Source: Ruminiclostridium papyrosolvens DSM 2782
Lineage (GTDB): Bacteria > Bacillota > Clostridia > Acetivibrionales > DSM-1351
DNA length: 64,000 nucleotides
Reading direction: 5' to 3'
NCBI RefSeq assembly: GCF_029318685.1
Contig: NZ_CP119677.1
Span: 3,401,001 to 3,465,000 of the forward strand
Part shown: in pieces, positions 22,234 to 38,345 of the stretch
How the letters are laid out: every line of letters begins with the position of its first letter
How positions within the stretch are numbered: the stretch's first letter is position 1
The notes under the pieces: generated by a model
Databases searched by the model: none
What the model saw: the letters and a program-made list of their open reading frames with translations, nothing else
Told to the model about the DNA's origin: nothing
Made by a program: the position numbers and the translations under genes

Positions 22234-22861
22234 TTTCTCTAAAAAGAAGAAAATAATTAGCGGAAGTGTGTTACTTATTGTATCTGTACTATTAGTCTAC
22301 ATACTAGTCGACCAGTTTACATTTTTTACCAATAAATCAGAAATTACAGGATTTATAAGTAAATATATGCGATCCATTGAGGGAATAAATATGCTGTCTG
22401 CGGATTGTCTTACTACTGATGATAAGGGAGTAAAAAGAATAGGAGATAAGAAAAAAAAAGATTTTCGTGATTTCTATAAAAAATATTATTTTGCTAACGA
22501 CAGTAATAAAGAAAAACTCAAATATACTTTTAATACATATGATTCAGGTATACAAAATATCCTCGATAAAAAGGGTGCACTAAAACAATTCAACCTTAAA
22601 TCGTTTAAAATAATTTCAACATTCAAAATACCCTTTGCATCTCATATAACAGCTAAAGTGTCTTACACAATAGATTATAAAGCAAACGGTTCTATCTGTT
22701 ACTTTGATGGTACAGACATTTTGGCCATCCAATCCGGCTCCATTGATGAAGAACTTTCAGCTTCGAATCATATACAAGCCACTTTTTACTTAAAAAAAGT
22801 AGATAGCGATTGGAAGATATCAAGAATCCCCCGTTTAGAAAGTACAAATATAAGCGATTAA
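22220..22861 (+). CDS. Membrane-anchored extracytoplasmic protein of the ABC locus
   Basis: 213 residues: a lysine-rich N-terminus, one membrane helix (about 12-35) and a soluble outer domain ending in strands (HIQATFYLKKVDSDWKISRI) that resemble NTF2-like folds. No recognised family. The start is TTG at 22220, 9 bases after GGAGG, giving a 14-base overlap with the ATPase gene; the ATG at 22226 is 15 bases away and less likely. As last gene of the exporter operon it may protect the producer or assist the exporter. Confidence 0.65.
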   Translation: MIMNNFSKKKKIISGSVLLIVSVLLVYILVDQFTFFTNKSEITGFISKYMRSIEGINMLSADCLTTDDKGVKRIGDKKKKDFRDFYKKYYFANDSNKEKLKYTFNTYDSGIQNILDKKGALKQFNLKSFKIISTFKIPFASHITAKVSYTIDYKANGSICYFDGTDILAIQSGSIDEELSASNHIQATFYLKKVDSDWKISRIPRLESTNISD

Positions 22862-22881
22862 TAGTTTCAGAGCAGCTCACG

Positions 22882-22910
22882 TTGAATAAAACTTTGCTTG
22901 ATGCTATACT
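22882..22910 (+). promoter_or_regulatory. SigA-type promoter of the pentapeptide-repeat gene
   Basis: TTGAAT (22882-22887), 17 bases, TATACT (22905-22910), 35 bases before the start codon. Confidence 0.65.
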
Positions 22911-22944
22911 TTTTTAGTAAAGTACCTAAACAGGAGATTTAACA

Positions 22945-23592
22945 ATGAAATTACAAAAGCCTAAGATACCTGACAAATTAATACAATCAGAAAATATAAA
23001 TGAAATAGTTATGAGCTTAACCTCTTCAGGTTATGATATCGAAAACTACCACTTTAAAAGCTGTTCTCTCAATGACATTTCTTCCATTTCCGTAGAATTC
23101 AGTAAATGTATTATTGAAAAATGCAGTATTAAGAAATGCGATGTGCAGAACTTTGTGTTCGACAATGTTATATTCAGGGATTGTGATATTTCAAATATGG
23201 ATTTCAGTGATGCGGTATTCAGAAACACCGAATTTGTAAACTGTAATCTTACCGGTATCATACTTTCTCACACAAGACTCAGCGATATATCTGTCAGCTC
23301 CTGCAATATGCAGTACTCAAATTTAACGAACTCGCATATCTCCCGGAGCCGCATTGAAAAGTCCAACCTTTCTAACAGCTACATATGGGAAGCTCAGCTA
23401 AAGGATGTGGAATTTGAACAATGTACTCTGGTTTCAGTAGAATTTACCGGAACCCTGCTAAAAGATATTGATTTTACTTCCTGTGAATTGGAGGGTCTGC
23501 TTATCAAAGGGCCTGAACTAAAGGGAGCCATTGTCAATGAATTTCAAGCCCTATCCTTGTCAAAGCTGTTGGGCATAGTCATTAAGGATTAA
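22945..23592 (+). CDS. Pentapeptide-repeat protein
   Basis: 215 residues. From about residue 35 to 195 the chain follows the five-residue period A/C-(D/N)-(L/F)-X-X (CDISNMDFSDAVFRNTEFVN, SNLTNSHISRSRIEKSNLSN), which forms a right-handed beta helix. Functions of the family range from DNA-gyrase protection to toxin immunity; none can be assigned here. It has its own promoter and lies between two peptide-export loci, so a protective role is conceivable. Its last 11 bases overlap, tail to tail, with the TolC-like gene on the other strand. Confidence 0.88.
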   Translation: MKLQKPKIPDKLIQSENINEIVMSLTSSGYDIENYHFKSCSLNDISSISVEFSKCIIEKCSIKKCDVQNFVFDNVIFRDCDISNMDFSDAVFRNTEFVNCNLTGIILSHTRLSDISVSSCNMQYSNLTNSHISRSRIEKSNLSNSYIWEAQLKDVEFEQCTLVSVEFTGTLLKDIDFTSCELEGLLIKGPELKGAIVNEFQALSLSKLLGIVIKD

Positions 23593-24805
23593 TATTGCCG
23601 CTGATTGCCTTTTCTATTTTGCCAAGTGCTTCTACATACCCGCAAAGGCTGTCCCAGGCTTCCTGTGCTGCTATTTTGTAATTTACTTCTGCTTCCTTCA
23701 AAGACAGCTCTGTTGCAAGCTTGTAGTTATATTTATTGAGCAGGATTATATACTTTTGGTAAAGTGCATTTGCCTTTTTTTCTTTTATATTAACTTCATA
23801 GTATTTGCTTTTGTATTGAGAATAATAATTCTGGAGCAATGCTCTTCTTTGAATAAGCCACTTTCTTGCTTCTAGCTCTGCCTGCTTTTTTTCGTTAACA
23901 GCAAGCTTTATCTCATTGGAGGAATCCTTATAATATTCCTTTAATATACTTATTTTCCCATCCAATATTCTAACCTTTTCCCCCATTTGCATATTTTTGT
24001 AATCATTTAAGTAAAAGCTTTTCTCTACCTCAGAAAAATTTTTAAGGGGAATAGCTCTGATAGATGCTACAGGTACACTGATTGTTACCGCCTTTGTAGT
24101 GTCCATTGCGCTGCTGCTTAATACATTTTCCGTATTGGTATTAACTTGCTGTGTAAGCAACTCCTGCTGACTGATGTAATAGTCATAATCAGCATTATGT
24201 AAGTCAATATCTGACTGAAAGGCCATATCTTTTGATTTATTTATTTCCTCTGAATTTCCTTGGAGTCTGGCGTATTCAGCCATTGTTTTCTGAACTAAGC
24301 CTTTTTCGTACAAAAGCTTCATATTATATATGTCGTCTCTGAATAAGGATAATTGTGCAGTACGTTGAATATTCCGATACACAGATGAGTTATTATACGT
24401 AATAATGCTGTTTTCCTTATTTGAATACATTTCTGACTTTTGTGCTGTTAAATCAGCCAACTGCTTCTGATATTCTGCTGCGTCCTTATTTTGGTCGATG
24501 AGTTTTTTTATGTTCACTATATCATTATTGATTTTATCAAACTCCAGAGAATACTTCTGGTAAAGCAAATTGCTGTTTTCTATATCCATTTCTGTGCTTT
24601 GGACATTGTAGTAATTATTCAGATACAAATTCTGGATTTCGCCATATGTGTACTTTACTGAATTTCCCGTACCGTATACAAGGTTAAAGCTATCTCCCAT
24701 ACTCCAGTTCCCAAGGGATACAACAGAAGCAGCAGCAGCGGTGCTTATAGCTGCTGTCATCAGGGATAATGCTAAAAATACCGTACAAAGTTTTTTTATT
24801 AACAT
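23582..24805 (-). CDS. Secreted TolC-like coiled-coil protein
   Basis: 407 residues. A signal peptide (MLIKKLCTVFLALSLMTAAI then STAAAA) is followed by long amphipathic helices arranged twice, the TolC/outer-membrane efflux pattern: YTYGEIQNLYLNNYYNVQST opens the first repeat, and ELEARKWLIQRRALLQNYY with ATELSLKEAEVNYKIAAQEA closes the second. TolC proteins form the outer-membrane exit tunnel of type I secretion in Gram-negatives; related proteins of unclear role occur in some Firmicutes. It is last in the operon after the C39 ABC and HlyD genes, the usual partners. The ATG at 24805 has AGGAG 8 bases upstream; the ATG at 24838 has no site. Confidence 0.7.
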   Translation of the reverse strand: MLIKKLCTVFLALSLMTAAISTAAAASVVSLGNWSMGDSFNLVYGTGNSVKYTYGEIQNLYLNNYYNVQSTEMDIENSNLLYQKYSLEFDKINNDIVNIKKLIDQNKDAAEYQKQLADLTAQKSEMYSNKENSIITYNNSSVYRNIQRTAQLSLFRDDIYNMKLLYEKGLVQKTMAEYARLQGNSEEINKSKDMAFQSDIDLHNADYDYYISQQELLTQQVNTNTENVLSSSAMDTTKAVTISVPVASIRAIPLKNFSEVEKSFYLNDYKNMQMGEKVRILDGKISILKEYYKDSSNEIKLAVNEKKQAELEARKWLIQRRALLQNYYSQYKSKYYEVNIKEKKANALYQKYIILLNKYNYKLATELSLKEAEVNYKIAAQEAWDSLCGYVEALGKIEKAISGNINP

Positions 24806-24844
24806 TTTATTCGCTCCTATGATAGATTTTAAAGCCATGCTACA

Positions 24845-26722
24845 TCAATCCAGCAGATTTATTTTTTCAAGGAAATATCGTAAAAAGCTCTTTTCCTTGG
24901 TTATTACATTTGCTTCACATATCATTCCTGCCTTTATTTCTCCCTGTCTTCCGGAACTTCCAAGCATTTTTGTAACCGGAACCGTTGCTTCAACAATATA
25001 ATAGCTTTGTCCCTCTGGATTATTCACTGCGTCCTTTGATATACTTGTTATTTTTCCTTGTGCCTGTCCGTATTCTCTGTACGGCAGTGCTGCAAAGTTG
25101 TATTTCACCGTATCCCCTGTATGTATTTCACCAATGTCTTTATTACTTACTGTTATCTGCATTTTAAAAGCTGAATTGGTGTCGGGTATTATTGTTAATA
25201 TTTCCGCTCCTGCTGCCACCAAGTCCCCCGGGTAAATGTCCTTTATTATGTTAACTTCTCCGTTTACACCGGCCTTTACAATGGCATTGTCAATACTCAG
25301 TTGCAGTTTTTTTACGTTTTCGTTAACACCTGTAATACTATCGGTTATTGCTTTAATCCTTTCATCGGCAGCAACTACCTCCTGAACCTTTGTTCTCTCC
25401 ACCAGAGAGTAATTAAGAGAGTCATCATTATTGCCATCGGCATCTGTTATGGTCTTTAGTTCTGCATCGGAAAGCACATTTTTTTGTCTTAATGTCCCGA
25501 CGGTGTTGGTTAAACCGTCTATTGCCTGAGCTGCATCGTTCCGCTCCTGTAAATACAATGCTTTTAAGTTGTTTTTTCTGTCCTTCTCATTTAAATCAAG
25601 AAGACCCTGTTTGCCCTGTGTACCTGAAAGTTTGCTTTCCTTTTCCTTTATGCTTATTTCAATATCGTTTATGTTTTTCTCCAATTCTGATAAAAACTTA
25701 CTTTTGTATGAAGTGTATTCACCTTGGGAATTCTGCATTTGTGAACGTGCATCCTCCAACTCGGCTTTTGTAATGGCTATTCCGCTTAGTGAAAGGTATG
25801 CCTCGTATATTCTTTTTTTCTCATCATATGTATTTTTCAGCAGATTCAATTTATTTTCATAATCTGAGTAAAGATAAGAATACCTGTCTCCGGACAAAAA
25901 GCTATTTTTTGACTCGCTGACACTCTTTTTCAGTGTCTGATATGCCTTTAACTGAGATTTTTCCTCTTCAAACGATTGTTTCATGGCATCTGGGCTGTTA
26001 CTCTTTATTTCATCAGCCTGTCGGTCGTATTTTCTTTGTATTTCTGTTTTAGCTATAAGGTATTTGTCATATTTTTGTTTGAATTGCTTTTCCTGTTCCT
26101 CTCCCGAATCTAAATAATTTTTATTGTTGTCCAAGGATTTTATATACTTTTTCAAATATTCTATTTCTGCAAGGCTCTTATTGAGTTGTGTACTGTTAAG
26201 AAGCTTTTCTTCACTAAGCTTTGTAGTTTTATATGCCGTGTCTGTTTGAGAAAATCTAATGTCCATGAGAAGCTTTCTTACCTTTTCAAAATATACAGGC
26301 TCTTTTACGGAATCGAAACTATTTTCTTCCGTAGTAATGCATTTTCTATATATTTTCAGGTTATCCAAATCTTTTTCCAATTCGTTAAGCTTCTCTTCTG
26401 CCGACTCTTTTTCCATTAACAAATTGTCGTGTTTGATTACGTATAGAACATCACCGGCCTTAACTGCCATACCTTGTTTTAAATTAGTGCTTTTCAGTTC
26501 TCCCCCAACAATGTTCCTGACAGTACTTATTCCTAATTCGGGCCTTACCTGTCCGGGGGCCTTCACCACTATTTCCTTCTTGCCAAAAGCTGCCCATATT
26601 ACAGCCGTTACAACCAATCCAATCAAGATATATGTAAATATCCACACAAAGGGATGAGGTTTTGAATGATACATTTCACGGCTTTCTGTAAGTTCATTTA
26701 TATCAATTAATACTTCCTTCAT
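24845..26722 (-). CDS. HlyD-family membrane fusion protein
   Basis: 625 residues, long for the family. Single N-terminal membrane helix (FTYILIGLVVTAVIWAAF, about 29-46), first half-lipoyl segment (VRNIVGGELKSTNLKQGMAV, DVLYVI), a very long coiled coil (about 80-465), the second lipoyl half (IVKAGVNGEVNIIKDIYPGD) and a beta-barrel end (VTVSNKDIGEIHTGDTV). It would bridge the ABC transporter at the membrane to an outer partner, here probably the TolC-like protein. It starts one base after the ABC gene ends. Confidence 0.93.
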   Translation of the reverse strand: MKEVLIDINELTESREMYHSKPHPFVWIFTYILIGLVVTAVIWAAFGKKEIVVKAPGQVRPELGISTVRNIVGGELKSTNLKQGMAVKAGDVLYVIKHDNLLMEKESAEEKLNELEKDLDNLKIYRKCITTEENSFDSVKEPVYFEKVRKLLMDIRFSQTDTAYKTTKLSEEKLLNSTQLNKSLAEIEYLKKYIKSLDNNKNYLDSGEEQEKQFKQKYDKYLIAKTEIQRKYDRQADEIKSNSPDAMKQSFEEEKSQLKAYQTLKKSVSESKNSFLSGDRYSYLYSDYENKLNLLKNTYDEKKRIYEAYLSLSGIAITKAELEDARSQMQNSQGEYTSYKSKFLSELEKNINDIEISIKEKESKLSGTQGKQGLLDLNEKDRKNNLKALYLQERNDAAQAIDGLTNTVGTLRQKNVLSDAELKTITDADGNNDDSLNYSLVERTKVQEVVAADERIKAITDSITGVNENVKKLQLSIDNAIVKAGVNGEVNIIKDIYPGDLVAAGAEILTIIPDTNSAFKMQITVSNKDIGEIHTGDTVKYNFAALPYREYGQAQGKITSISKDAVNNPEGQSYYIVEATVPVTKMLGSSGRQGEIKAGMICEANVITKEKSFLRYFLEKINLLD

Positions 26723-26723
26723 T

Positions 26724-28925
26724 CTAAAGCTCCCCTCCTGTCATGGAATATGCGGGTGTTTCAGGCAGCTGTCCCTTCCATAACTCAAAGTATTTACCTC
26801 CGAGTTCCATAAGTTCCCCATGGCTGCCCTGTTCAATAATACTGCCTTCCTCCATTACATAAATCCTGTCACAACGTTTAATAGTGCTTAATCTGTGGGC
26901 TATTATAATGGTTGTTACACCGCTGCAAACGGTATCCAGTGTTTTTTCTATTGCCTTCTCAGTAATTGAGTCCAGATTACTGGTGGCTTCATCCATTATA
27001 AATATGTCAGGTTTTTTTAAAATAGCTCTGGCTATTGCAAGCCTTTGCTTTTGTCCTCCCGATAAATTTGCACCATTTTCTTCAAGATAAGTTTCATAGC
27101 GCAGTGGAAGCTTGTTTATAAAATCATGTGCCTGTGCCATTGAACAGGCTTCTATTATTTGCTCCATATGAGTATTTTGGCTGCCCAAGGTAAGATTTTC
27201 ACGGATTGTTCCGCTAAACATAAAAATATCCTGAGAAATGTAGGCAAGCTTTTCTCTGAGAGGCTCAAAGGATATATCCTTTATATTATAGTCTTTTATA
27301 GTAATTTCGCCCTTTTCCCATGTATACAGGTTCAATAAAAGCTTGACTAATGTAGTTTTTCCAGAACCGCTTTCCCCTACCAATGCAATTTTTTCGCCCT
27401 GCTTTATTGTAAAATCAATGTTTTTTAATACCAAAGAACGTGTTCCATACCTGAAATCAACATTTTTAAAAGAAATATCTCCCTTTAAATCAACAGGTTT
27501 TATTTTTTCACCTTCATTTTGGCTCTTTTCCAACTCCAGGTCAAATATTTCTCCAAGTCGGTCAGAAGCTACTATTGCGGTTTGCAACATAGGTTGCAGA
27601 TTTATAAGGTTTTTTATGGGGTCAAGGAAATATACCAACAGAGCATTAAAAGTTAAAAGCTGTCCTACGGTCATGTGGCCCTTTATAACATTCCACGCAC
27701 CAGCCCACAATATAACTATGCCTCCGGCCAGAGCAGCAAAGGAGGTAATTGATGTACGAACGTTATTAATTATACCTCCTTTAAATATAGAGCGAAGCAG
27801 CTTTATAAACCTTGTCTCAGTTTTCAGCGATGCTTCACCCTCGGCATTAAAGGCCTTTACCGTTTCAATTCCATTTAAGGATTCCACAAGATATGAGGTG
27901 AGCTGTGAATTCTCTTCCATTTGCTCCTGATTAATTTTCTTTATTGGTTTATTAAACACAAAAACAATAATCCCGTATATTGCCCCTATAATGGCTGCTA
28001 TTATAAAAAGTGCAGAATTCTGCGTATAGAGTATAACTGCTCCTGCCAGTGCCATGAATGTGTCAATCATAATTGTAAGAGTAGCACCTGAAATTGCATC
28101 CCTTACCTTTGATGCATCCATAAATCTTGAAACAATTTCTCCCACCTTCCTTGTACCGAAGAAATTCATAGGAAGTCCGAGAACATGCTGGTAGTAGCCT
28201 AATATTAGAGGTATATCTATTTTTTGTGACAAATATAGTATCATATGAGCCCTGAAAGCACCCAATAAGGTCTGAAAGAGGTATAGCAGAATTATACCTA
28301 TAGAAATTACATGAAGGGTTTTTTCAAGGTTGTATTGCAGAATATCATCAAGTAAAAACTTAAAATAAAATGAGCCCAGAATTCCTAACACCGTGTATAC
28401 TAAGGATGTTAAGAAAATATTTATTAAGAGCTTCTTTTGTGGCAGAAGCAAACTGAAAAATCGTGAAAAAAGACCTTTTGTTTCATCCCCCTTGTTAAAG
28501 GAAACATTAGGAACCATTAGCACAAGTACGCCTGTCCATATCTTAAAAAAATCCTCAGGTGTATACTCAACAATACCCTTTCCCGGGTCAGCAACCAAAA
28601 CCTTTTTTTTAGTTATTTTATGTATTACAACGTAATGCAGTAATGTTCCGTCAACTACAACATGGGCTATACACGGTAATGGAAACTCAGAAAAAAAGGC
28701 CTCCTGATTGCCCTTCACTCCTTTTGCTGTGAAACCCAGACTTTCAGCTGCCTTTATCAATCCATATGCATTTGTACCTTGTTTGTCGGTGCCAGCCGTT
28801 TCTCTTATCTTTGTTATTGATGTTTTAAATCCATATTGCTTACTTATAGTTGCAAGACATGCTGCACCGCAATCTGTGATGTCATGCTGCTTGACACAAT
28901 AAAAATGTTTGAATGGGATATTCAT
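26724..28925 (-). CDS. Peptidase-C39 ABC transporter for double-glycine peptides
   Basis: 733 residues: C39 protease (1-150) with catalytic Cys19 (DITDCGAAC), His97 (LLHYVVIH) and Asp113 (VADPGKG); six-helix ABC membrane domain (about 165-450); ATPase (about 480-720) with Walker A GESGSGKTT, signature LSGGQKQR, Walker B IFIMDEATSNLD and IIAHRLSTI. Such transporters cut leaders after Gly-Gly and export the core peptide. The small precursor encoded at 29907-30062 ends its leader in VDGG and is the obvious substrate. GGAGAG lies 7 bases before the ATG. Confidence 0.97.
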   Translation of the reverse strand: MNIPFKHFYCVKQHDITDCGAACLATISKQYGFKTSITKIRETAGTDKQGTNAYGLIKAAESLGFTAKGVKGNQEAFFSEFPLPCIAHVVVDGTLLHYVVIHKITKKKVLVADPGKGIVEYTPEDFFKIWTGVLVLMVPNVSFNKGDETKGLFSRFFSLLLPQKKLLINIFLTSLVYTVLGILGSFYFKFLLDDILQYNLEKTLHVISIGIILLYLFQTLLGAFRAHMILYLSQKIDIPLILGYYQHVLGLPMNFFGTRKVGEIVSRFMDASKVRDAISGATLTIMIDTFMALAGAVILYTQNSALFIIAAIIGAIYGIIVFVFNKPIKKINQEQMEENSQLTSYLVESLNGIETVKAFNAEGEASLKTETRFIKLLRSIFKGGIINNVRTSITSFAALAGGIVILWAGAWNVIKGHMTVGQLLTFNALLVYFLDPIKNLINLQPMLQTAIVASDRLGEIFDLELEKSQNEGEKIKPVDLKGDISFKNVDFRYGTRSLVLKNIDFTIKQGEKIALVGESGSGKTTLVKLLLNLYTWEKGEITIKDYNIKDISFEPLREKLAYISQDIFMFSGTIRENLTLGSQNTHMEQIIEACSMAQAHDFINKLPLRYETYLEENGANLSGGQKQRLAIARAILKKPDIFIMDEATSNLDSITEKAIEKTLDTVCSGVTTIIIAHRLSTIKRCDRIYVMEEGSIIEQGSHGELMELGGKYFELWKGQLPETPAYSMTGGEL

Positions 28926-29028
28926 TTATCGACTCTCCAATTTTACTAATTAATTACATAGTTTAACATATTTGATGAATGTATAGAAGGAAAACTTATA
29001 ATTTTGTATAATTACTAATTGAAAGATG

Positions 29029-29069
29029 AAAGGCATTCAGCTTCTATTATTAGAAACCTGAACGCCTTT
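29029..29069 (-). terminator. Hairpin upstream of the C39 transporter gene
   Basis: AAAGGC-ATTCAG (29029-29040) pairs with CTGAA-CGCCTTT (29058-29069) with one mismatch. It lies between the 132-residue protein gene and the transporter, so the exporter genes are probably transcribed at a lower level or from their own promoter. Confidence 0.55.
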
Positions 29070-29175
29070 TCAAAGAATACAATATAAGTTGTAAATAGAA
29101 ATGAATATCGGTAACACCGATACTTCGGAAAAGCTTAATAAATTAAAAACATCATATTTAAAGATACATCATATT

Positions 29176-29574
29176 TCAAGCAAGAAGGAAATCCTTTTGC
29201 TGTGAGTTCCTGTTTAGTTTGTCATAAATATTCCAGCACAAAAAGTTATGGATTTTGCTTGTTTCTTTTTCACTATCTTTTGAAATACATACCGCATTTA
29301 CCATATGAAAAATAGGCTTAAAAACATAATCACCAGATGTGGTTACCCTTTTTGATAGCGGAACAAGTATTTCCATGTCTATCAAAGGTAATCCATCGTG
29401 CATTTCAATTGAAAATGTTACCGTTGTTATGGCTCCATATTGTTTTAAGTTATTATCTTTAAGAAATTTTTTTATCTTAATAATTTCAAAAATGACCTGT
29501 TTACTTGTCATTTTTTTTCTTAAAGTAATAACATTTCTCAATCGATAATCCTTTTGTACTGATGATAATGCCAT
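29176..29574 (-). CDS. Small cytosolic protein, DUF5085-like
   Basis: 132 residues without signal or membrane segment. The pattern (RNVITLRKKMTSKQVIFEII, YGAITTVTFSIE, PLIDMEILVPLSKRV, FKPIFHMVNAVCI) resembles DUF5085 and the wider GyrI-like fold: strand-rich halves around a helix. I place it there with limited certainty. AGAGGAG lies 7 bases before the ATG. It lies between the peptide/membrane-protein pair and the exporter, so immunity or chaperoning of the peptide is possible. Confidence 0.6.
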   Translation of the reverse strand: MALSSVQKDYRLRNVITLRKKMTSKQVIFEIIKIKKFLKDNNLKQYGAITTVTFSIEMHDGLPLIDMEILVPLSKRVTTSGDYVFKPIFHMVNAVCISKDSEKETSKIHNFLCWNIYDKLNRNSQQKDFLLA

Positions 29575-29602
29575 TTAAATTCTCCTCTGAGCTTAAATAC
29601 TT

Positions 29603-29860
29603 TCATTTGTAAAATTTATTTAATGCTCCTATTATCACATTGATTATTGCGGCAACCAAAAATATACTGGAAAGTATAATACCTACAACCGCCATCCATC
29701 TTTTAGTGGATTTCATGCCTAGAATACCCAATATCAGCCCTACAATTGAAACCGGAATTCCTACAATAGGTAGCAACCAAGCCAAGGTATCAACTATGCC
29801 CAATATAAATGAAGTACGAGCTTTATCCATACAATCCGGTTCATTATTTGAAAAAGACAA
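29603..29860 (-). CDS. Small hydrophobic membrane protein (DUF4190-like)
   Basis: Up to 85 residues with two or three membrane helices (TLAWLLPIVGIPVSIVGLIL and MAVVGIILSSIFLVAAIINV) separated by a short basic loop GMKSTKRW, the DUF4190-like pattern. Such small membrane proteins next to bacteriocin genes often give immunity. The start is uncertain: TTG at 29860 is 14 bases from AAGGTGG, and ATG at 29830 has no clear site. It lies 46 bases after the peptide precursor. Confidence 0.7.
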   Translation of the reverse strand: MSFSNNEPDCMDKARTSFILGIVDTLAWLLPIVGIPVSIVGLILGILGMKSTKRWMAVVGIILSSIFLVAAIINVIIGALNKFYK

Positions 29861-29906
29861 ACCTACAATTTATTCCACCTTCTATTCCTACAAAAATTAA
29901 TAGACA

Positions 29907-30062
29907 TTAAAAATAATTTATAATTTTAATAATACCTATAATAATAGTTGTAACGCATTGCCTCGGCGAATCGATACCGCCATCTACACACATAGCCTCA
30001 TCGTTTTCCAAAACTTCAAATTGATCTGCCTTAATATCCATACAAACGTTTTTCTTACCCAT
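29907..30062 (-). CDS. Double-glycine leader peptide precursor
   Basis: 51 residues from an ATG at 30062 with AAGGAGG 5 bases upstream. The leader (residues 1-29) is acidic and ends in DEAMCVDGG, the Gly-Gly cleavage signal of C39 transporters, with the hydrophobic positions (F, V, L, M) seen in class II leaders. The core would be 22 residues: IDSPRQC, then VTTIIIGIIKIINYF, basic-polar then strongly hydrophobic, with one Cys. It could be a bacteriocin or a pheromone. Gene order (kinase and regulator upstream, C39 exporter downstream) supports a self-induced exported peptide. A longer in-frame start at 30113 lies within the terminator hairpin and is unlikely. Confidence 0.85.
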   Translation of the reverse strand: MGKKNVCMDIKADQFEVLENDEAMCVDGGIDSPRQCVTTIIIGIIKIINYF

Positions 30063-30074
30063 AAAATCCTCCTT

Positions 30075-30122
30075 AAAAAAAACTGTATTTGGCAATGTCT
30101 CAACTTCAACCAAATACAGTTT
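30075..30122 (-). terminator. Terminator/attenuator between the peptide promoter and its ribosome site
   Basis: A 13-bp perfect stem (30110-30122 with 30080-30092) with a 17-base loop, followed on the minus strand by eight Ts (30082-30075) that run straight into AAGGAGG (30074-30068). It terminates read-through from the kinase gene, yet lies downstream of the putative peptide promoter. A transcript starting 5-8 bases after the -10 would begin inside the left arm and have a weaker stem. Confidence 0.8.
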
Positions 30123-30185
30123 ATTATATTTACAATAATATTCAATATTTTTTGCACAACATGTCTATATAATGTCATAAAATGT
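30123..30185 (-). promoter_or_regulatory. Peptide promoter with AgrA-like direct repeats
   Basis: A consensus -10 TATAAT (30128-30123) has no good -35 at 17 bases, as expected for an activator-dependent promoter. Upstream, ACATTTTAT (30185-30177) and ACATGTTGT (30164-30156) are direct repeats exactly 21 bases apart, with a third ACAT between them at 30175. LytTR regulators of the AgrA type bind 9-base repeats at 21-base spacing. The region starts 7 bases after the kinase stop. Confidence 0.55.
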
Positions 30186-30191
30186 ATACAT

Positions 30192-31520
30192 TCACATTTT
30201 TATATTGAGCAATATTTCCAATTTAAATACTTTGTTTTCACATATGGTGCTCAGACTGCCACCATATTTCTCTACGCTATCATTAATATTTTTCAGTCCA
30301 AAACCGTGATGTTCCTTGTTTTGTTTTGTAGTTTCAATCTCTTTTCCTGTAATTTTTATATCTTTTTCAACTGAATTTTCAATTAGAATAAATAAGCACT
30401 TACCCTGTATGTATGTAGCAATTTTTATAAAGCGCTGAGAATCTTGGGATTTCACAGCTGCTTCTATGGCATTGTCCAGAGCGTTTGAAAAAATAGTACT
30501 GATATCAAAAGGGTTTATAAAGTTCTCCCTTGGCAAAATACCTGAAAACTCAAATTTTATTCCCAGATTATGTGCCATCTTGTTCTTTTCGTTTAATATT
30601 GCATCAGTGATACTGTTGCCGCTGCTTATTTCAAGGTCAAGTCCACGCATGGTGTCCTCAATTTCGTCAAGCAGTTCCTTTGCTTCATCAATATCATTAT
30701 TTTCAATGAGAGTCCTAATCAATCTTAAGTGATTTTTCATATCATGCTTCAGTTTTCTGGTTTCCTGATTTTTACTCGTTATCTGCTCGTAATGATTAAA
30801 CTGTGTTCGCAGTTGGGCTTCAGACATTTCATTGAGATGCTTATATTTCTTATTAAGAATCATCTTATCAATCAAAATCATTACTATTACGTTGTATATT
30901 ATTGTACATAAAGATGCAATTAACAAAAATGCAGAGGTATTTACCGGAACCTTTACGAAATTCCTTACTCCCCAGTCAAGAATTGTGATTGAGGCAAAAC
31001 TGAAGGCAGGGAGCATAATAAGAATCAATGTCTGAACAGATGATAGTATGTTTATTTTTAATGTTGTGTTAGTAGCAAAGTTCCTCATGAGAATATATAC
31101 AAGTATAATCAATATGATTTTTATTACAGTAACCCATATTCCTCTTACCCCTCCGGATAAAGTACTAAAAAATAAATTATAGTTAAATCCCATATTTGTA
31201 AAGGAAATTATAAAAATATCTAAAACATAGTTAAGACAAACTGCCGTGCAAAATGCAAATATCTTGTGTGCAAAGTTCCCTTTAAAAGCCGTAAATACAA
31301 AAAAGAGTACAAATAAAGAAGTGATGAAATCAACTATAAACAAAATAGGAAAAATAATTTTAGCCACTTTAAGTAATCCGTATATAGCAAAATATAGTAT
31401 TACATTTTTTTTTGCTCTTTCGGTAAAGTCTAAAAATATTGAAATCATAAAAACAAAAATTAATATTTCAAATATACTTGAAATCAAGTCAATTAGGCTG
31501 TTTCCCAAAAATCCTAGCAT
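30192..31520 (-). CDS. AgrC-like sensor histidine kinase (GHKL)
   Basis: 442 residues: about six membrane helices in the first 220 residues, then a cytoplasmic kinase with the phosphorylated His in KLKHDMKNHLRLI and a GHKL ATPase (NALDNAIEAA as N box, HHGFGLKNI as G box). This is the layout of peptide-pheromone receptors AgrC/ComD-type. It overlaps the regulator stop by 7 bases. No agrB or agrD gene is nearby, so the ligand is probably the double-glycine peptide rather than a cyclic thiolactone. Confidence 0.9.
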   Translation of the reverse strand: MLGFLGNSLIDLISSIFEILIFVFMISIFLDFTERAKKNVILYFAIYGLLKVAKIIFPILFIVDFITSLFVLFFVFTAFKGNFAHKIFAFCTAVCLNYVLDIFIISFTNMGFNYNLFFSTLSGGVRGIWVTVIKIILIILVYILMRNFATNTTLKINILSSVQTLILIMLPAFSFASITILDWGVRNFVKVPVNTSAFLLIASLCTIIYNVIVMILIDKMILNKKYKHLNEMSEAQLRTQFNHYEQITSKNQETRKLKHDMKNHLRLIRTLIENNDIDEAKELLDEIEDTMRGLDLEISSGNSITDAILNEKNKMAHNLGIKFEFSGILPRENFINPFDISTIFSNALDNAIEAAVKSQDSQRFIKIATYIQGKCLFILIENSVEKDIKITGKEIETTKQNKEHHGFGLKNINDSVEKYGGSLSTICENKVFKLEILLNIKM

Positions 31521-32218
31521 CTTATATTTCCTTTCATAAACGCCTTGAAAGCCTCCTTGAATGAATTAATCTTTAGTCTGCTAATTAAAACTTTCTGGTT
31601 ATTTGTTAAAATAATCTCATTGTTTGAAAATTCACAAACATGCTCAAAATTTACAAGATATCCCTTATGACATCTGAAGAACTGCTTGTTTTGGAGGGAG
31701 GCTTCTATTTGATTCATTTTACCTATAATCGTAATAATTCCGTTTTTTGTATGAATATCAATTTTTCTCCCGTTGCACTCAAAGTAATAAATATCATCTA
31801 TTTGAATTCTGAAAGTATGATTGTTACTTACCGCTTCAAAATGTGTAGTTTTCCTGTCTATAACTTCATTTATGGCATTTTTGAGAATACGGTTGACTTT
31901 GTCTATGTCAATGGGTTTTACAAAATAATTATACGGCTTAACCTGAAAAGAATCAAAAACCATTTCCTTGTGAGACGTAAGAAATATAATCATTCCCTCA
32001 TAACCGCCCTTACGAAGCTCCAGGGCTGTTTCTATGCCATTTATTCCTGTCATTTCAATATCCAGTAACACAATATCGTTATACAGATACTTACTGTCAA
32101 GCAAGTTCTCTCCACAATCATAGGAATATACTTCTATATCAGGCCTTATGCCTTTTATGTTATCGGATAATGTTCCGGTAATATGGTTTTCATCATCGCA
32201 TAGGGAAATTCGTATCAT
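31514..32218 (-). CDS. LytTR-family response regulator (AgrA/ComE-like)
   Basis: 234 residues: receiver domain with acidic pair CDDE, phosphorylation site IVLLDIEMTG, FLTSH and Lys in YFVKPI; a LytTR DNA-binding domain (about 135-232) with FECNGRKIDIHT and FFRCHKGYLVNFEHV. This class controls bacteriocin, competence and virulence genes. It follows secA2 after an 88-base gap containing its own promoter and ends within the start of the kinase gene. Confidence 0.94.
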   Translation of the reverse strand: MIRISLCDDENHITGTLSDNIKGIRPDIEVYSYDCGENLLDSKYLYNDIVLLDIEMTGINGIETALELRKGGYEGMIIFLTSHKEMVFDSFQVKPYNYFVKPIDIDKVNRILKNAINEVIDRKTTHFEAVSNNHTFRIQIDDIYYFECNGRKIDIHTKNGIITIIGKMNQIEASLQNKQFFRCHKGYLVNFEHVCEFSNNEIILTNNQKVLISRLKINSFKEAFKAFMKGNIRC

Positions 32219-32247
32219 TCAATCACCTGCATAAAAATATTATGTAT

Positions 32248-32276
32248 ATTGTACCATAATTTTCTATCGTTCTGAA
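32248..32276 (-). promoter_or_regulatory. SigA-type promoter of the regulator/kinase genes
   Basis: On the minus strand TTCAGA (32276-32271), 17 bases, TACAAT (32253-32248), 30 bases before the regulator start. Confidence 0.6.
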
Positions 32277-32306
32277 TAGTTTTTATATCACAAGATAAAG
32301 ATGCAT

Positions 32307-34610
32307 TTATAATCTGCTGAATATTGAGAAATTTTTTACCTTGATACTGTCATTAATTATATAAGTCCAAGTAGCCGAAGGGGTTTTCAGGCCCTTATCA
32401 GCCAGCTGGCTGTCATTCATTGAGAAGTCGGTATTTTCCAAAGTTTCAAGAATTCTTTCCTTCATTTCTTCCTGAAGCTGTTCAAATTTGCTGATACTGA
32501 GTCTGTTAAACTCGTCCACAGGTTCTTTTCTTCCTGCCAATACCAGATTTATTCCTTCCTTTATGTTTTCGCAGTATTCAAGAAAGTCATACCAAAGTTC
32601 GTCCATACAGTTAAGAGACATTTTTCTCTGAATTTCATCAACTCTTTCTTTTCCATACCGGCTGCACAATTCATCATACAGCTCTTTTTTCTCTGTGGAC
32701 AAAAGCCCTGGGGCGCCGGAGGACAATACTTCAAACCTTTTTTTCATAAATGCCCTTCTTTGCCATTCAAGGAGATATGAATACTTCCCCAATGTTTTTC
32801 TTATCTCAAAATTCTGACCGTCCACCACTCTCTGTATATGGCATATTAATGACAAAAGCTTTCGGTCATCAAGCCTCTCCTCTTGCCTGAATCCATAATA
32901 TTTTGAAGGTATATCTTTTTTTAAGCCGAATTGTACCAGTAAATCGTCTTCCAAGCTTATAAAAAAGCGTGAAGAACCGGGGTCACCCTGCCTGCCAGCT
33001 CTGCCCCTCAACTGATTATCTATCCTGACACATTCATTTCTGCTGACGCCGATAACATAAAGTCCTCCCAATTCCAAAACTTTTTTTCTTTCTTCGGGAG
33101 AGTCTTCTCCGCCCAACTTTATGTCTACTCCACGTCCAGCCATATTGGTAGAAACTGTGACAGCTCCAAACTTCCCGGCAAGAGCAATTATCTTGGCTTC
33201 CTCTTCGTCATTCTTTGCATTTAACACCACACACTCTATTCCCTGTTGCCTGAGCAAGGCTGCCACCTGCTCTGACTCCTTTATGCTGGAAGTCCCTATC
33301 AGTACCGGACGCCCCATACTATGAGAGGTACATACCTCTTTAACTACAGCGTTGTACTTTGCTTCTTTATGAGTGAAAACATAATCATCGTAATCAATAC
33401 GGATACATTTTTTATTTGGGTGGACAACATATACATCATGTTCATATGTACTACCGAATTCGTCCTCAGATGACTTTGCCGTAGCAGTCATCCCTGACAT
33501 TTCAGGATATAGGCTTATAAAATTTTGAATTGGTATTTTGCCGAGTATTCTGTTACTGGCCGTACATTTAATTCCGTGAAGAGCTTCTATGGCTATCTGC
33601 AGCCCATAATCCCATTTTCTTCTGTCCGCAACTCTCCCGGTAAATTCGTCAATAATTTCAATTCGGCCGTCTTTTATAATATAATCTATATCTTGTTTTA
33701 AAAGAACTTTTGCATGAAGAAGATTGTTTATGTCCGTAAGTGTTTCAACATTCTTACGGCTATACAGATTCCCGCAGCTCAGGTATTTCTCCGCTACAGA
33801 ACTTCCTTTTTCAGTTAAATAAACATTTCTGCTGTTCTCATCAGTCATGTAATCAATATTCTGCCTTAATAACCCCACCAGTTCTAGAAGTCGGTTATCT
33901 ATTTGGTGCTGATCGCCGATATTCCCTGCAATAACCAACGGCGTTCTGGCCTCATCTATAAGAATTGCATCCGCTTCGTCAACAATTACACAGTTGAAGA
34001 GCCTATGTACAGTTTCACTTTTTTCGTAGACTATGGAGTCCCTTAAATAATCAAAGCCTGCTTCTTTTGGTGTAACATAAGTTATGTCTGCCAGATAGGC
34101 TTTCCTTCTTTGAGGCCTGTCCATGTTTTCCTGAATATATGCTGCTTTTAATCCCCAGAATTCATATATTCCCTGCATCCATTGGGCATCTCTTTTAGCA
34201 AGGTAGTCATTAAATGTTAAGACATGAACTCCTTTTCCGGTAAGAGCATTTAAAACTGCCGGAAAAACTGCCGCAAGGGTTTTTCCCTCTCCTGTGGGCA
34301 GTTCCGCAATTTTCCCAAAACATAACGCTATTCCCGTCAATAGTTGTGATTCGTAAGGCTCCAAACATAATACTCGCCTGCATATCTCTTTTGTAATTGC
34401 ATAACACTGAGTCATATATCCATTAGCAAATTGCTTAGTGTCACGAATATTGGAATTATTATCAAGATACCGTAAATAATTTTGTTTATAGGTATTAATT
34501 ATTTGCTTCAACTCAGAATCAGAAAGTTTAGTAAAGTCTTTTTGGTTTATTATATTGACCAACTCTTTGTACTGTGCCGGCCTTATACCTTTTTTTCTTT
34601 TTAGTAACAT
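32307..34610 (-). CDS. SecA paralogue (SecA2-like ATPase)
   Basis: 767 residues. SecA motor motifs: Walker A ELPTGEGKT (canonical MRTGEGKT altered at the first residues), VDEADAILIDEARTPL, MTGMTATA-type (MSGMTATAKSS), GTSSIKESE and TNMAGRGVDIKLGG with QLRGRAGRQGDPG. The N-terminal extension is short and the C-terminal zinc-binding Cys motif of housekeeping SecA is missing, as in SecA2 proteins. SecA2 helps export a limited set of proteins. It lies directly upstream of the pheromone regulator genes on the same strand. GGGGG lies 6 bases before the ATG. Confidence 0.93.
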   Translation of the reverse strand: MLLKRKKGIRPAQYKELVNIINQKDFTKLSDSELKQIINTYKQNYLRYLDNNSNIRDTKQFANGYMTQCYAITKEICRRVLCLEPYESQLLTGIALCFGKIAELPTGEGKTLAAVFPAVLNALTGKGVHVLTFNDYLAKRDAQWMQGIYEFWGLKAAYIQENMDRPQRRKAYLADITYVTPKEAGFDYLRDSIVYEKSETVHRLFNCVIVDEADAILIDEARTPLVIAGNIGDQHQIDNRLLELVGLLRQNIDYMTDENSRNVYLTEKGSSVAEKYLSCGNLYSRKNVETLTDINNLLHAKVLLKQDIDYIIKDGRIEIIDEFTGRVADRRKWDYGLQIAIEALHGIKCTASNRILGKIPIQNFISLYPEMSGMTATAKSSEDEFGSTYEHDVYVVHPNKKCIRIDYDDYVFTHKEAKYNAVVKEVCTSHSMGRPVLIGTSSIKESEQVAALLRQQGIECVVLNAKNDEEEAKIIALAGKFGAVTVSTNMAGRGVDIKLGGEDSPEERKKVLELGGLYVIGVSRNECVRIDNQLRGRAGRQGDPGSSRFFISLEDDLLVQFGLKKDIPSKYYGFRQEERLDDRKLLSLICHIQRVVDGQNFEIRKTLGKYSYLLEWQRRAFMKKRFEVLSSGAPGLLSTEKKELYDELCSRYGKERVDEIQRKMSLNCMDELWYDFLEYCENIKEGINLVLAGRKEPVDEFNRLSISKFEQLQEEMKERILETLENTDFSMNDSQLADKGLKTPSATWTYIINDSIKVKNFSIFSRL

Positions 34611-34639
34611 AAAATACCCCCGTTATATTATTTTAGGAG

Positions 34640-34838
34640 TTATCTCTGAGGTACCATATCTTGAATCAGCATGTCCATCCTTGTGAGGCTATAGCCTGCC
34701 TTCTGAAGCAATATGCTACTCCTGCCTGATAGTTTTCCCCATTTCAATTCCTTTGCCTTCTCAAGGTCGTTCAGGCCAATTTCCTGTCTCCCCGGCATAA
34801 TTCAATAGCCTTTCAATCTCATAAGCAGGATTAATCAA
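34640..34838 (-). pseudogene. Small ORF upstream of secA2 with an apparent frameshift
   Basis: A TTG at 34838, 7 bases after AGGAGG, opens a frame reading INPAYEIERLLNYAG, which then stops early. A one-base shift at the GGGG near 34793 leads into RQEIGLNDLEKAKELKW and on to LLQKAGYSLTRMDMLIQDM, ending at 34640. The second frame also has its own ATG at 34798 (52 residues, AAAGG 10 bases before), so it may be translated alone. Function unknown; the ORF ends 30 bases before secA2. Confidence 0.45.
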
Positions 34839-34913
34839 TACTCTGCCTCCTTTTGACTGATTGTTTATTTAATTATATATCACTATATCACTGTTTTATA
34901 GAATAAATTAGAA

Positions 34914-34972
34914 AAAAAGCATAAAGCCGGAAAGCCTGCACCATGCAGAAATATACCGGATTTATGCTTTTT
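34914..34972 (-). terminator. Bidirectional terminator of fabV
   Basis: A 17-bp stem with one mismatch (34914-34930 with 34956-34972) with A/T runs on both sides, 10 bases after the fabV stop. An inner TGCA-CC-ATGCA palindrome sits in the loop. Confidence 0.8.
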
Positions 34973-34981
34973 AACAATAGT

Positions 34982-36169
34982 TTAGTCTATGCCCTCAATA
35001 CTTATATCTATATCAACATCGGCGTTATAGTCAACACCTTCAAATTCAAAACCAAAAAGTCTGAAAAACTCTTTTCTGTAGCTTTCAATATCAGTGATGT
35101 CTTTTACATTATCGTTATTAGCTTGATTCCAGAGTTTTGTCACCTCAGCCTGAACTTCAGGAAGCATTTCCAAATCATCCATACGGATTCTGCCCTTGCT
35201 GTCCAGTTTCAAGTCCCCGGAATAGAGCCTGTCATTGAACATTCTGTACATTTGCTCAATACAACCCTCATGAATATTTTTTTCTTTCATTACTTTAAAT
35301 AATGCACTAATATAAAGGGATATAACAGGTATAGCAGCGCTGGCTTGTGTTACAACCGCTTTATTGATGGAAACATAAGCTTTTGTGCCGATGCCTTTAA
35401 GATTCTCGTTAATTTTTGTCACAGTAGCCTCAAGGTCATCCTTGGCTTTTCCGATAGTTCCCTCCCTGTATACAGAATGAGTCATTTCAGGGCCTACGTA
35501 GGAATATGCAAGGGTAATTGCATTTTCCTCAAGAGCATCGGCATTTTTCAGGGCGTCCATCCACATTTCCCAGTCCTCTCCGCCCATTACCGCAATGGTT
35601 TGTCTTATTTCATCTTCGTTGGCAGGCTCAATAGTTGTTTCAGAAACAAGCTGTGTATGAAAGTCTACTGTTTTTGATGTATAAGTTGAACCAATTGGCT
35701 TTATAACTGAATTGAATACCTCACCGGTTACAGGATGTGTCCTTCTTGGAGAAGCCAGACTGTAAACTACCATGTCTATCTTACCAAGGTCTTTTTTTAT
35801 CAAATCTATAGTTTTCTGCTTTATTTCATTTGAGAAGGCATCCCCGTTTATACTTCTTGCATACAGTCCGTCTTCTTTTGCTATTTTTTCAAAAGCAGCT
35901 GAATTGTACCATCCTGCAGAGGCCGTTTTATTTTTAGACCCAGGCCTTTCAAAGAATACACCGATTGTAGCTGCTCCGCACCCGAAGGCAGCAGTTATTC
36001 TGGATGCCAATCCATAACCTGTGGAAGCTCCAATAACCAATACTTTTTTAGCACCATTTACCTTTTTCTGATTTTTAACATACTCAACCTGTTTCCTGAC
36101 ACTATATTCACAACCTGCAGGGTGTGATGTTGTACAAATGAATCCACGGAATTTAGGTGAAACTATCAT
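34982..36169 (-). CDS. fabV: Trans-2-enoyl-CoA/enoyl-ACP reductase (NADH)
   Basis: 395 residues, the full length of FabV/TER. The NADH site GASTGYGLASRI and the catalytic Tyr-X8-Lys in YREGTIGKAK are present, together with SLASPRRTHP and the N-terminal GFICTTSHPAGC. It reduces trans-2-enoyl thioesters: in fatty-acid synthesis as an alternative to FabI/FabK, or crotonyl-CoA in butyrate-type pathways. No other fatty-acid genes are adjacent, so its physiological substrate is open. AAGGAGG precedes the ATG. It stands alone with its own terminator. Confidence 0.95.
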   Translation of the reverse strand: MIVSPKFRGFICTTSHPAGCEYSVRKQVEYVKNQKKVNGAKKVLVIGASTGYGLASRITAAFGCGAATIGVFFERPGSKNKTASAGWYNSAAFEKIAKEDGLYARSINGDAFSNEIKQKTIDLIKKDLGKIDMVVYSLASPRRTHPVTGEVFNSVIKPIGSTYTSKTVDFHTQLVSETTIEPANEDEIRQTIAVMGGEDWEMWMDALKNADALEENAITLAYSYVGPEMTHSVYREGTIGKAKDDLEATVTKINENLKGIGTKAYVSINKAVVTQASAAIPVISLYISALFKVMKEKNIHEGCIEQMYRMFNDRLYSGDLKLDSKGRIRMDDLEMLPEVQAEVTKLWNQANNDNVKDITDIESYRKEFFRLFGFEFEGVDYNADVDIDISIEGID

Positions 36170-36311
36170 AAAATCCTCCTTGAATATCAGCTTTATATAT
36201 TATAAGCCGGATTACTGCTTAACATATTTTTTAGTCTACACTATATTATAGCACAGTATGAAGAATTTTAAAATTAGATATTAATACTTGGTACTAATTA
36301 TTACCCCTTAC

Positions 36312-37569: not shown

Positions 37570-38345
37570 AAGTCATGACCACCCGTAAAACGGGTGGCTT
37601 GTGATAGCCCTATAAGGGCTTGTTACCGGCCAGCGCCTAAAGACGCTGGCTTTCACTTTGTTCAAGCTATTATTGCCCTTGCCGCTTTTGCTACCCCTGA
37701 AGGGACAAACGTACTACTGGCTACCCCTTAAAGGGGTCTTCATACTCTTTCACGCTTAGTTTATCTACCATAATATCGTGCTTTTCTTGCTCTTGTATAT
37801 ACTTCTTAATAGTTGCCTCATTGAGTCCTACAGTACTCACATAAAATCCCTCTGCCCAAAAGTGTCTATTTCCAAACTTATATTTTAAGTTTGCATGCAT
37901 ATCAAATATCATTAATGCACTTTTTCCTTTTAGATATCCCATGAAACTTGATACACTTATTTTAGGCGGTATACTTACTAACATGTGTATATGGTCTGGC
38001 ATTAGATGCCCTTCTATTATTTCAACTCCCTTGTAATTGCACAGTCTCTTTAATATTTCTCTTATACTTTGCTTGTATTGATTATAAATTACTTTTCGTC
38101 TATACTTTGGAGTGAACACAATATGATACTTACACATCCATTTGGTATGTGCTAAATTATTTTGTTTTATTGCCATTGAAATCACCTTTCTTTAGTTAAA
38201 CTAGTAGCTTGAACAACTCTATTTTAACGGTTAGGTGATTTTTTTGTATAACTTTTTGTCGCCACCCGCATAGCAGGTGGTTTATTGTTTCGCATGACTC
38301 ATTTCTCTTGCGAGAAACTCGCCTAATGCTCAACAGGCTAAAGCC
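37570..38345 (-). mobile_element. IS200/IS605-family insertion sequence (tnpA only)
   Basis: The element surrounds the IS200 tnpA gene. Its subterminal hairpins are visible: CCACCCG-TAAAA-CGGGTGG near 37579 and CCACC-CGCATAGC-AGGTGG near 38265, plus GCCAGCG/CGCTGGC at about 37630-37650. There are no terminal inverted repeats, as expected for this family, so the ends are approximate. No tnpB lies within. It sits between the secreted-protein gene and the gap terminator without breaking either. Confidence 0.75.
37721..38176 (-). CDS. tnpA: IS200-family transposase TnpA (Y1 HUH)
   Basis: 151 residues, normal for IS200 TnpA. HLMPDHIHMLVSIPP carries the HUH metal site (HIH), and the nucleophilic Tyr lies in the GFYVSTVG region about residue 120, with KKYIQEQEKHD after it. 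The enzyme moves single-stranded element DNA through hairpin-guided cutting. The ATG at 38176 follows AAGGTG by 6 bases. The reading frame is intact, so the copy may be active. Confidence 0.93.
   Translation of the reverse strand: MAIKQNNLAHTKWMCKYHIVFTPKYRRKVIYNQYKQSIREILKRLCNYKGVEIIEGHLMPDHIHMLVSIPPKISVSSFMGYLKGKSALMIFDMHANLKYKFGNRHFWAEGFYVSTVGLNEATIKKYIQEQEKHDIMVDKLSVKEYEDPFKG

What the first reader, a model, noticed from the sequence alone, without database searches (positions are those of the whole stretch)
23582..34838. Peptide pheromone/bacteriocin system joining AgrCA, C39-ABC, HlyD, a TolC-like protein and a SecA paralogue
Seen: nine genes on one strand over 11 kb with a Gly-Gly peptide precursor between a receptor-kinase pair and a C39 exporter. 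Known: C39 ABC plus HlyD export class II peptides; AgrC/ComD kinases sense peptides; TolC proteins serve Gram-negative outer membranes; SecA2 exports selected proteins. Inference: the peptide is exported, sensed, and drives its own operon, and the export path is extended by a TolC-like protein and possibly a second Sec motor. I know of no described locus with this full set.
Basis: partly seen in the sequence, partly recalled or inferred. Interest (0 to 1): 0.85.

Follow-up and report, generated by a model that had tools for sequence, protein, structure and literature searches.

The report
Peptide-signal cassette with barrel-less TolC relative
A clostridium appears to make, export and sense its own small signal peptide, using an exporter that includes a relative of the Gram-negative channel TolC without its membrane-spanning part, while the neighbouring secA2 gene is probably just a neighbour.

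Summary
The nine genes are real and lie on one strand of a Ruminiclostridium genome. Eight form a credible peptide-signalling cassette: AgrA/AgrC-type pair, one double-glycine peptide, a small membrane protein, a half GyrI/DUF5085 protein, a PCAT1-like C39 exporter, a long HlyD and a TolC-like protein. The full order is kept in 5 of 11 genomes of the genus. A diverged sixth has the same core order with other Gly-Gly peptides (three bacteriocin-like), no match to the small membrane protein and no SecA2. SecA2 probably does not belong: it tracks galactose genes, occurs in 9 of 11 genomes, and its presence is unrelated to the exporter (Fisher p = 1.0). New here: (1) a 31-bp repeated box upstream of the peptide, once in each of the six genomes with AgrC and in none of the other five; (2) an invariant terminator-like hairpin between the peptide's -10 and ribosome site; (3) a confident model (pLDDT 89) with the TolC fold but no outer-membrane strands, in a genus without Omp85. 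TolC-like proteins in single-membrane Firmicutes are published; their pairing with a peptide-signal C39 exporter was not found in our searches. Function is inferred.

The parts
23582..24838 (-). TolC-like (OEP-superfamily) secreted protein, predicted without outer-membrane beta-strands
24845..26722 (-). HlyD-family adaptor, 625 aa, with about 215- and 165-residue stretches either side of a candidate hairpin tip
26724..28925 (-). C39 peptidase-ABC exporter, close relative of PCAT1
29032..29066 (-). conserved hairpin in the p132-C39 gap (terminator- or processing-like; weak U-run)
29106..29122 (-). second inverted repeat in the same gap (terminator-like in the scan)
29176..29574 (-). 132-aa protein, related to the N-terminal part of longer DUF5085/GyrI-like proteins
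29603..29860 (-). 85-aa hydrophobic protein (weak DUF4190 match, below cut-off), candidate immunity or accessory protein; start codon uncertain
29907..30062 (-). 51-aa double-glycine peptide precursor, 29-aa leader and 22-aa core
30080..30122 (-). invariant terminator-like hairpin (13-bp arms given here, 17-base loop), followed by a U-run just before the peptide ribosome site
30123..30128 (-). TATAAT-like -10 directly abutting the hairpin
30155..30185 (-). 31-bp direct-repeat box, candidate AgrA site
30192..31520 (-). AgrC/ComD-type GHKL receptor histidine kinase
31514..32218 (-). AgrA-type LytTR response regulator
32248..32276 (-). promoter-like element before agrA (the TACAAT -10 is conserved in five species)
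32307..34610 (-). SecA2 (mycobacterial-type model); judged a neighbour, not part of the cassette
34649..34838 (-). galT/galK deletion remnant upstream of secA2

Best explanation
It is a self-contained peptide-signalling cassette. The C39 domain cuts the 51-aa precursor after Gly-Gly and the ABC exporter releases the 22-residue core. A long HlyD adaptor and a TolC-like alpha-helical tube, which lacks the outer-membrane strands, extend the exit path through the wall of a single-membrane cell. AgrC senses the core and phosphorylates AgrA, which binds the repeated box at 30155-30185 and turns on the peptide gene. A terminator-like hairpin abutting the -10 stops read-through from agrAC but not starts at the peptide promoter, so the peptide is made only on induction. 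SecA2 is a neighbour tied to galactose genes. Shown: genes, coding constraint, conserved gene order, the box and hairpin, the predicted fold. Inferred: export, sensing, AgrA binding, insulation, wall crossing.
For: Full gene order kept in 5 of 11 genus genomes; same core order in a diverged sixth, with extra peptides and no p85 match. AgrC and TolC-like occur in the same 6 of 11 genomes, Fisher p = 0.002 (the genomes are related, so not independent). Box once in each of those six at up to 3 mismatches, 0 in the other five, 0 for the reversed-pattern control. Leader has Leu -12 in five of five orthologues and Glu -8 in four of five (Asp in G006), two of the three positions of the PCAT consensus in PMC8277102 (passage). 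C39 aligns with PCAT1 over residues 6-718, 906.8 bits. Hairpin arms identical in 5 of 5 while the loop varies, z = -3.0. TolC-like model pLDDT 89.1; Foldseek rows 1-44 are, by title or recall, TolC-family channels. Omp85 in 0 of 11 genus genomes, while 7 of 14 control genomes ring. HlyD-TolC-like pairs in 4 of 4 loci of a second Clostridia genus, with C39 adjoining in 3; the fourth contig ends inside HlyD.
Against: The leader has Ala, not the consensus Leu, at -7 in five of five. G003 keeps C39-HlyD without TolC-like or AgrC, so the tube is not essential to the exporter. The box fits the LytTR consensus I recall only in part and was not found before the C39 gene; its pattern was written after seeing G009; the looser pattern also gave five two-mismatch hits (control 1). 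The leader hairpin is not evident in G009. agrC of G006 is split between two frames near its end in the draft sequence. Foldseek TM-scores are modest (0.36-0.59 by query length in rows 1-44) with rmsd 5.5-17.4 A. With six sequences the model failed (pLDDT 47.8). No expression or peptide data.
Confidence: 0.55

Rival explanations
1. The peptide is itself a small bacteriocin (with the 85-aa protein as immunity), and AgrCA senses it or something else; signalling is secondary.
For: Weak Bacteriocin_IIc match, E = 0.0064, 16.9 bits against a cut-off of 27.1; core is amphipathic, moment 0.45, reached by 2.2% of shuffles; the relative G009 carries three bacteriocin-like Gly-Gly peptides between p132 and C39.
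Against: In both lineages one Gly-Gly peptide follows agrC and precedes the p132 gene, while G009 has its bacteriocin-like genes further down; the core is almost identical in five species, whereas bacteriocins tend to diversify (recalled).
Confidence: 0.3
2. SecA2 is a working part: a second Sec motor exporting the TolC-like or HlyD protein of this path.
For: Adjacent, same strand, 86-92 bp upstream of agrA in five genomes; G008 also has an AgrA relative as second gene after SecA2.
Against: G009 has the cassette without SecA2; four genomes have SecA2 without it; Fisher p = 1.0. A promoter-like element separates secA2 from agrA. Of the 80 SecA2 loci kept from 115 found elsewhere, 79 have no TolC-like, HlyD, AgrC or AgrA match at E <= 1e-6; 12 of the 80 are under 10 kb and many are actinobacterial.
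Confidence: 0.06
3. The TolC-like protein is not an export tube but a secreted coiled-coil wall protein carried along with the exporter.
For: No sign of an outer membrane; model lacks outer-membrane strands; G003 keeps C39-HlyD without it.
Against: Rows 1-44 of the fold search are TolC-family channels by title or recall; its gene directly follows HlyD in the six genus genomes that have it and in four loci of a second genus.
Confidence: 0.25

Closest known systems
Plantaricin (pln) and other three-component peptide pheromone/bacteriocin regulons
   Same: secreted inducing peptide, response regulators, an ABC-transporter system for double-glycine peptides (plnGH), conserved tandem repeats in promoters (PMC2714321, start of abstract and passages); that the kinase and regulators are of the HPK10/LytTR type and that PlnG is a C39-ABC is recalled
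   Different: TolC-like third component; PCAT1-type exporter; a single Gly-Gly peptide and no bacteriocin gene seen in the window; hairpin abutting the peptide promoter
PCAT1-CtA of Clostridium thermocellum
   Same: closest exporter in the PDB, 906.8 bits over residues 6-718; Gly-Gly cargo encoded in the same operon (PMC8277102 passages)
   Different: 22-residue core against a 66-residue mature CtA; here HlyD, TolC-like protein and a two-component pair are linked (whether PCAT1's own locus has them was not checked)
TolC-like proteins of monoderm Firmicutes (PMC8809574, section 8 read in full)
   Same: OEP-superfamily protein in BamA-lacking single-membrane cells, in operons with adaptor and transporter; the C. 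[quoted passage not shown]
   Different: those are discussed as efflux pumps; here a C39 peptide exporter with its signal system, and no outer-membrane strand in the model. The paper's figure of its 12 operons was not seen, so a C39 exporter among them is not excluded
agr (AgrBDCA)
   Same: AgrC/AgrA-type pair and a short peptide with one cysteine in the core
   Different: Gly-Gly leader and C39 exporter; no AgrB seen among the genes from secA2 to the TolC-like gene (no profile search for AgrB was made)

Membership tests
Three-component peptide pheromone regulon | Gly-Gly precursor next to a GHKL kinase and LytTR regulator | tested here: met
Three-component peptide pheromone regulon | direct repeats about two helical turns apart before the regulated gene | tested here: met
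   binding by AgrA not tested; only a partial fit to the LytTR consensus as recalled
Three-component peptide pheromone regulon | mature peptide induces its own gene through the kinase | not testable with these tools
   needs bench work
PCAT / C39-ABC peptide exporter | C39 domain fused to an ABC exporter, catalytic residues kept | tested here: met
   C39 4e-41; the PCAT1 alignment covers the C39 domain; catalytic Cys/His/Asp read by eye, their identity recalled
PCAT / C39-ABC peptide exporter | cargo leader with Leu -12, Glu -8, Leu -7 and Gly-Gly | tested here: inconclusive
   Gly-Gly and Leu -12 in 5 of 5, Glu -8 in 4 of 5, Leu -7 in 0 of 5; consensus from PMC8277102 passage
TolC / outer membrane factor | duplicated OEP helical fold | tested here: met
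   below the Pfam cut-off for the window protein itself
TolC / outer membrane factor | four outer-membrane beta-strands per monomer | tested here: not met
   strands only at 40-45, 50-54, 240-246 of the model; the joining loops are 4 and 8 residues; four strands per TolC monomer from PMC8809574 passage
Type 1 secretion system | channel in the outer membrane of a two-membrane cell | tested here: not met
   Omp85 family in 0 of 11 genomes
Type 1 secretion system | ABC exporter, HlyD and TolC-family genes linked | tested here: met
agr system | AgrB protease/exporter | not tested
   no profile search for AgrB was made
Accessory Sec (SecA2) system | second SecA beside the canonical one | tested here: met

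The most novel reading that the evidence does not exclude
A single-membrane bacterium builds a wall-crossing conduit for a peptide signal by docking a barrel-less TolC-type helical tube on an extra-long HlyD hairpin over a PCAT exporter: a tripartite secretion machine that needs no outer membrane and no BAM, and which answers the published question of how TolC-like proteins of monoderms assemble.
Probability: 0.3. Interest if true: 0.7.

Novelty: new variant of a known kind. Interest (0 to 1): 0.48.

Why it matters
Peptide-signal exporters of Gram-positive bacteria are, as I recall them, one- or two-part machines. A TolC-type third part tied to a peptide signal would mean that the cell wall itself can be a barrier that signal peptides are carried across. 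The barrel-less model gives a simple, testable answer to the question posed in PMC8809574 (section 8) of how TolC-like proteins assemble without BAM: there is no barrel to assemble.

Tried and rejected
SecA2 as a component was rejected on phyletic pattern and on the SecA2 loci from elsewhere. A first structure run with six sequences was unusable; adding four distant homologues gave a confident model. A genome-wide hunt with a looser repeat pattern gave one perfect hit, at the peptide, and five two-mismatch hits not followed up, against one hit of the control. Rfam found nothing over 22800-36500. Sequence search of the PDB with the TolC-like profile gave only two weak coiled-coil hits. The promoter/terminator scan is close to chance in number (32 against 27.3; 3 against 2.8), so I rely on cross-species conservation. 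The leader of the G009 peptide does not fold better than shuffles, nor does the secA2-agrA gap. Searching the order (58 genomes) found TolC-like proteins only in the genus (6 of 58); the class sample (9 of 391) added three genomes of one other genus, and the 14 held genomes of that genus gave no more (3 of 14). Literature: ten searches gave no paper on this locus in the rows listed; four of them matched more papers than were listed, and the library lacks most subscription journals. A co-culture study of R. cellulolyticum (PMC10128006, passages) had nothing on it. The whole-genome search for other Gly-Gly peptides that the exporter might serve was not done; only the window and fetched loci were scanned.

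Full report
What is there. The window lies in a 5,027,861-base one-contig genome. The nine genes of the finding are confirmed with family matches. The peptide starts at ATG 30062, with AAGGAGG before it, and is constrained as a protein: differences fall 42/15/105 on codon positions 1/2/3 over ten pairs. Orthologues in four other genomes have nearly the same 22-residue core (IDSPRQCVTTIIIGIIKIINYF in the window; I/V/L and N/D changes only), and the leader varies more. The leader has Gly-Gly, Leu -12 (5 of 5) and Glu -8 (4 of 5, Asp in G006) but Ala at -7 (5 of 5) where the published consensus has Leu (PMC8277102 passage).

Conservation of the set. Fetched loci show the order SecA2-AgrA-AgrC-peptide-p85-p132-C39-HlyD-TolC in G000, G002, G005, G006 and G007. 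The p85 gene was hidden by overlapping ORFs in three of the four printed lists of relatives, but was found in all five genomes by tblastn. agrC of G006 is split between two frames near its end in the draft sequence. G009 has AgrA (64%), AgrC (50%), a p132 relative (38%), C39 (84%), HlyD (61%) and TolC-like (38%) in the same order, with several Gly-Gly peptides, no p85 or window-peptide match and no SecA2. One of its peptides, 45 aa from its ATG, sits between agrC and p132 as in the window; three bacteriocin-like ones sit between p132 and C39. G003 has only C39 and HlyD of the set. G001, G004, G008 and G010 have SecA2 (61-62%) but no TolC-like or AgrC match and no HlyD match; the G001 copy matched only over residues 249-765. 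A canonical-SecA tree of 10 of the 11 genomes (G008 had no canonical hit) puts the five full-set genomes in one group, G001/G004/G010 in a second and G003/G009 in a third, midpoint-rooted. So the cassette occurs in two separate groups and SecA2 follows a different pattern.

SecA2. It passes the mycobacterial SecA2 model (747.2 against 725), and the canonical SecA is elsewhere. One or more of galT, galK and galE lie just upstream of it in seven of the nine SecA2 genomes (G001, G002, G004, G005, G006, G007, G008; GalT, GalK and an epimerase checked by Pfam). The window has a deletion remnant that joins a galT start to a galK fragment (GalK 60% over 50 residues, E = 3e-13; GalT 19 residues, E = 0.026). 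In G010 ABC transporter genes lie between, with a galE piece about 9 kb upstream at the edge of the fetched stretch. Presence of SecA2 and of the TolC-like protein is unrelated over 11 genomes (both 5, SecA2 only 4, TolC-like only 1, neither 1; Fisher p = 1.0). Of 80 SecA2 loci kept from 115 found elsewhere, only the R. papyrosolvens C7 locus holds TolC-like, HlyD, AgrC, AgrA or gal relatives at E <= 1e-6; 48 of the 80 are 20 kb or longer and 12 are under 10 kb. The counter-observation is G008, where SecA2 is followed by a CPBP-type protease (Rce1-like 1.1e-16) and a 59%-identical AgrA at the contig end.

Regulatory DNA. Upstream of the peptide is ACATTTTATG-N11-ACATGTTGTG. In the own genome it is the only perfect match; five others have two mismatches, against one for the control. 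A fuller 31-bp pattern, written after seeing G009, matches once, with up to three mismatches, in each of the six genomes that have AgrC and never in the other five, with zero hits of the reversed control. In G009 it lies just after agrC, and a half-matching copy lies before its agrC-side peptide. A TATAAT follows 26 bases after the box, with no good -35 that I could see. The next base begins a hairpin (14 pairs in the fold, z = -3.0) with a U-run that ends right before the ribosome site. Its arms and a T-run of at least 7 are identical in five of five species, and the substitutions seen within it fall in the 17-base loop. If transcription starts 6-8 bases after the -10, the start lies inside the 5' arm, so a full terminator would form only on read-through from agrAC. 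This is inference. The C39 gene is preceded by further strong structure (z = -3.6), and agrA by a conserved promoter-like block.

Exporter. The C39 protein aligns with PCAT1 from residue 6 to 718 of 733. HlyD is 625 aa; its C-terminal part from residue 438 aligns with the HlyD of the HlyB complex 8dck (chain C) from residue 289. Between a weak lipoyl-half match ending at 96 (below cut-off) and the second half near 486 lies a stretch with a candidate tip near 314, so arms of very roughly 215 and 165 residues. That is long enough for a wall of some 25-30 nm if they are continuous helices (inference, arithmetic at 1.5 A per residue); HlyD itself was not modelled.

TolC-like protein. With ten homologues, among them four proteins from three genomes of another Clostridia genus, AlphaFold2 gives pLDDT 89.1 and pTM 0.77. 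The model is a twofold repeat of long helices. Foldseek rows 1-44 are, by title or recall, TolC-family channels, E 9.6e-6 to 1.6e-2, TM 0.36-0.59 by query length, rmsd 5.5-17.4 A. TolC has four outer-membrane strands per monomer (PMC8809574 passage); here the joins that I take to correspond are loops of 4 and 8 residues. The placement of these loops at the outer end follows from my reading of the OEP fold, not from a superposition. No Omp85 match exists in any of the 11 genomes, while 7 of 14 control genomes ring, so the cells very probably have no BAM and no outer membrane.

Comparison with print. TolC-like proteins in monoderm Firmicutes, many in operons with the other two pump components, and an omission in the barrel of a C. 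difficile homology model are published (PMC8809574, section 8 read); that paper suggests they sit in the S-layer and asks how they assemble. Its operon figure was not available, so I cannot say which transporters its 12 examples have. PCATs with signal peptides, and PCAT1, are well known (PMC8277102, passages). Three-component regulons with tandem repeats are well known (PMC2714321, start of abstract and passages). I found no paper on this locus or on a TolC-like protein tied to a peptide signal in the rows listed by ten searches. Hence: a new variant of a known kind, with the barrel-less tripartite conduit as its bold reading.

Noticed in passing
window 16303-18243 (-): A single ORF matches phosphoglycerate kinase and triosephosphate isomerase over its two halves (PGK 8.9e-168, TIM 3.4e-97): a fused glycolytic enzyme.
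   Followed up: no
window 34649-34838 (-): Deletion remnant joining the galT start to an internal galK fragment; seven of the nine SecA2 genomes keep galT, galK or galE just before secA2.
   Followed up: yes
L152 138-4427 (G008): SecA2, CPBP-type protease and a 59%-identical AgrA in a row at a contig end, without an AgrC match at E <= 1e-30 in that genome.
   Followed up: partly
L149 8641-10479 (G009): One signal-like and three bacteriocin-like Gly-Gly peptides in the cassette of a diverged relative; further Gly-Gly peptides, some with a LSDEELLDMVGG leader, in L149 and L150.
   Followed up: partly
L171-L173: C39 exporter pieces 78-81% identical to the window's in another Clostridia genus whose TolC-like protein is only 25-27% identical, which suggests strong constraint or horizontal transfer of the exporter.
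   Followed up: no
L155, L156, L160: Paralogues or homologues of the 132-aa protein elsewhere in these genomes are longer DUF5085/GyrI-like proteins; the cassette copy lacks the C-terminal part.
   Followed up: partly
window 37721-38185 (-): IS200-like transposase (Y1_Tnp 5.4e-41) near the locus.
   Followed up: no
L147 15849-17138 (G005): Mutator-family transposase gene (2.8e-119) just after the TolC-like gene, where other genomes have a pentapeptide-repeat gene.
   Followed up: no
window 22945-23592 (+): Pentapeptide-repeat protein gene overlapping the end of the TolC-like gene by 11 bases; relatives at 81-88% in G002, G006, G007 and at 51-52% in G001, G010 near the same place.
   Followed up: no
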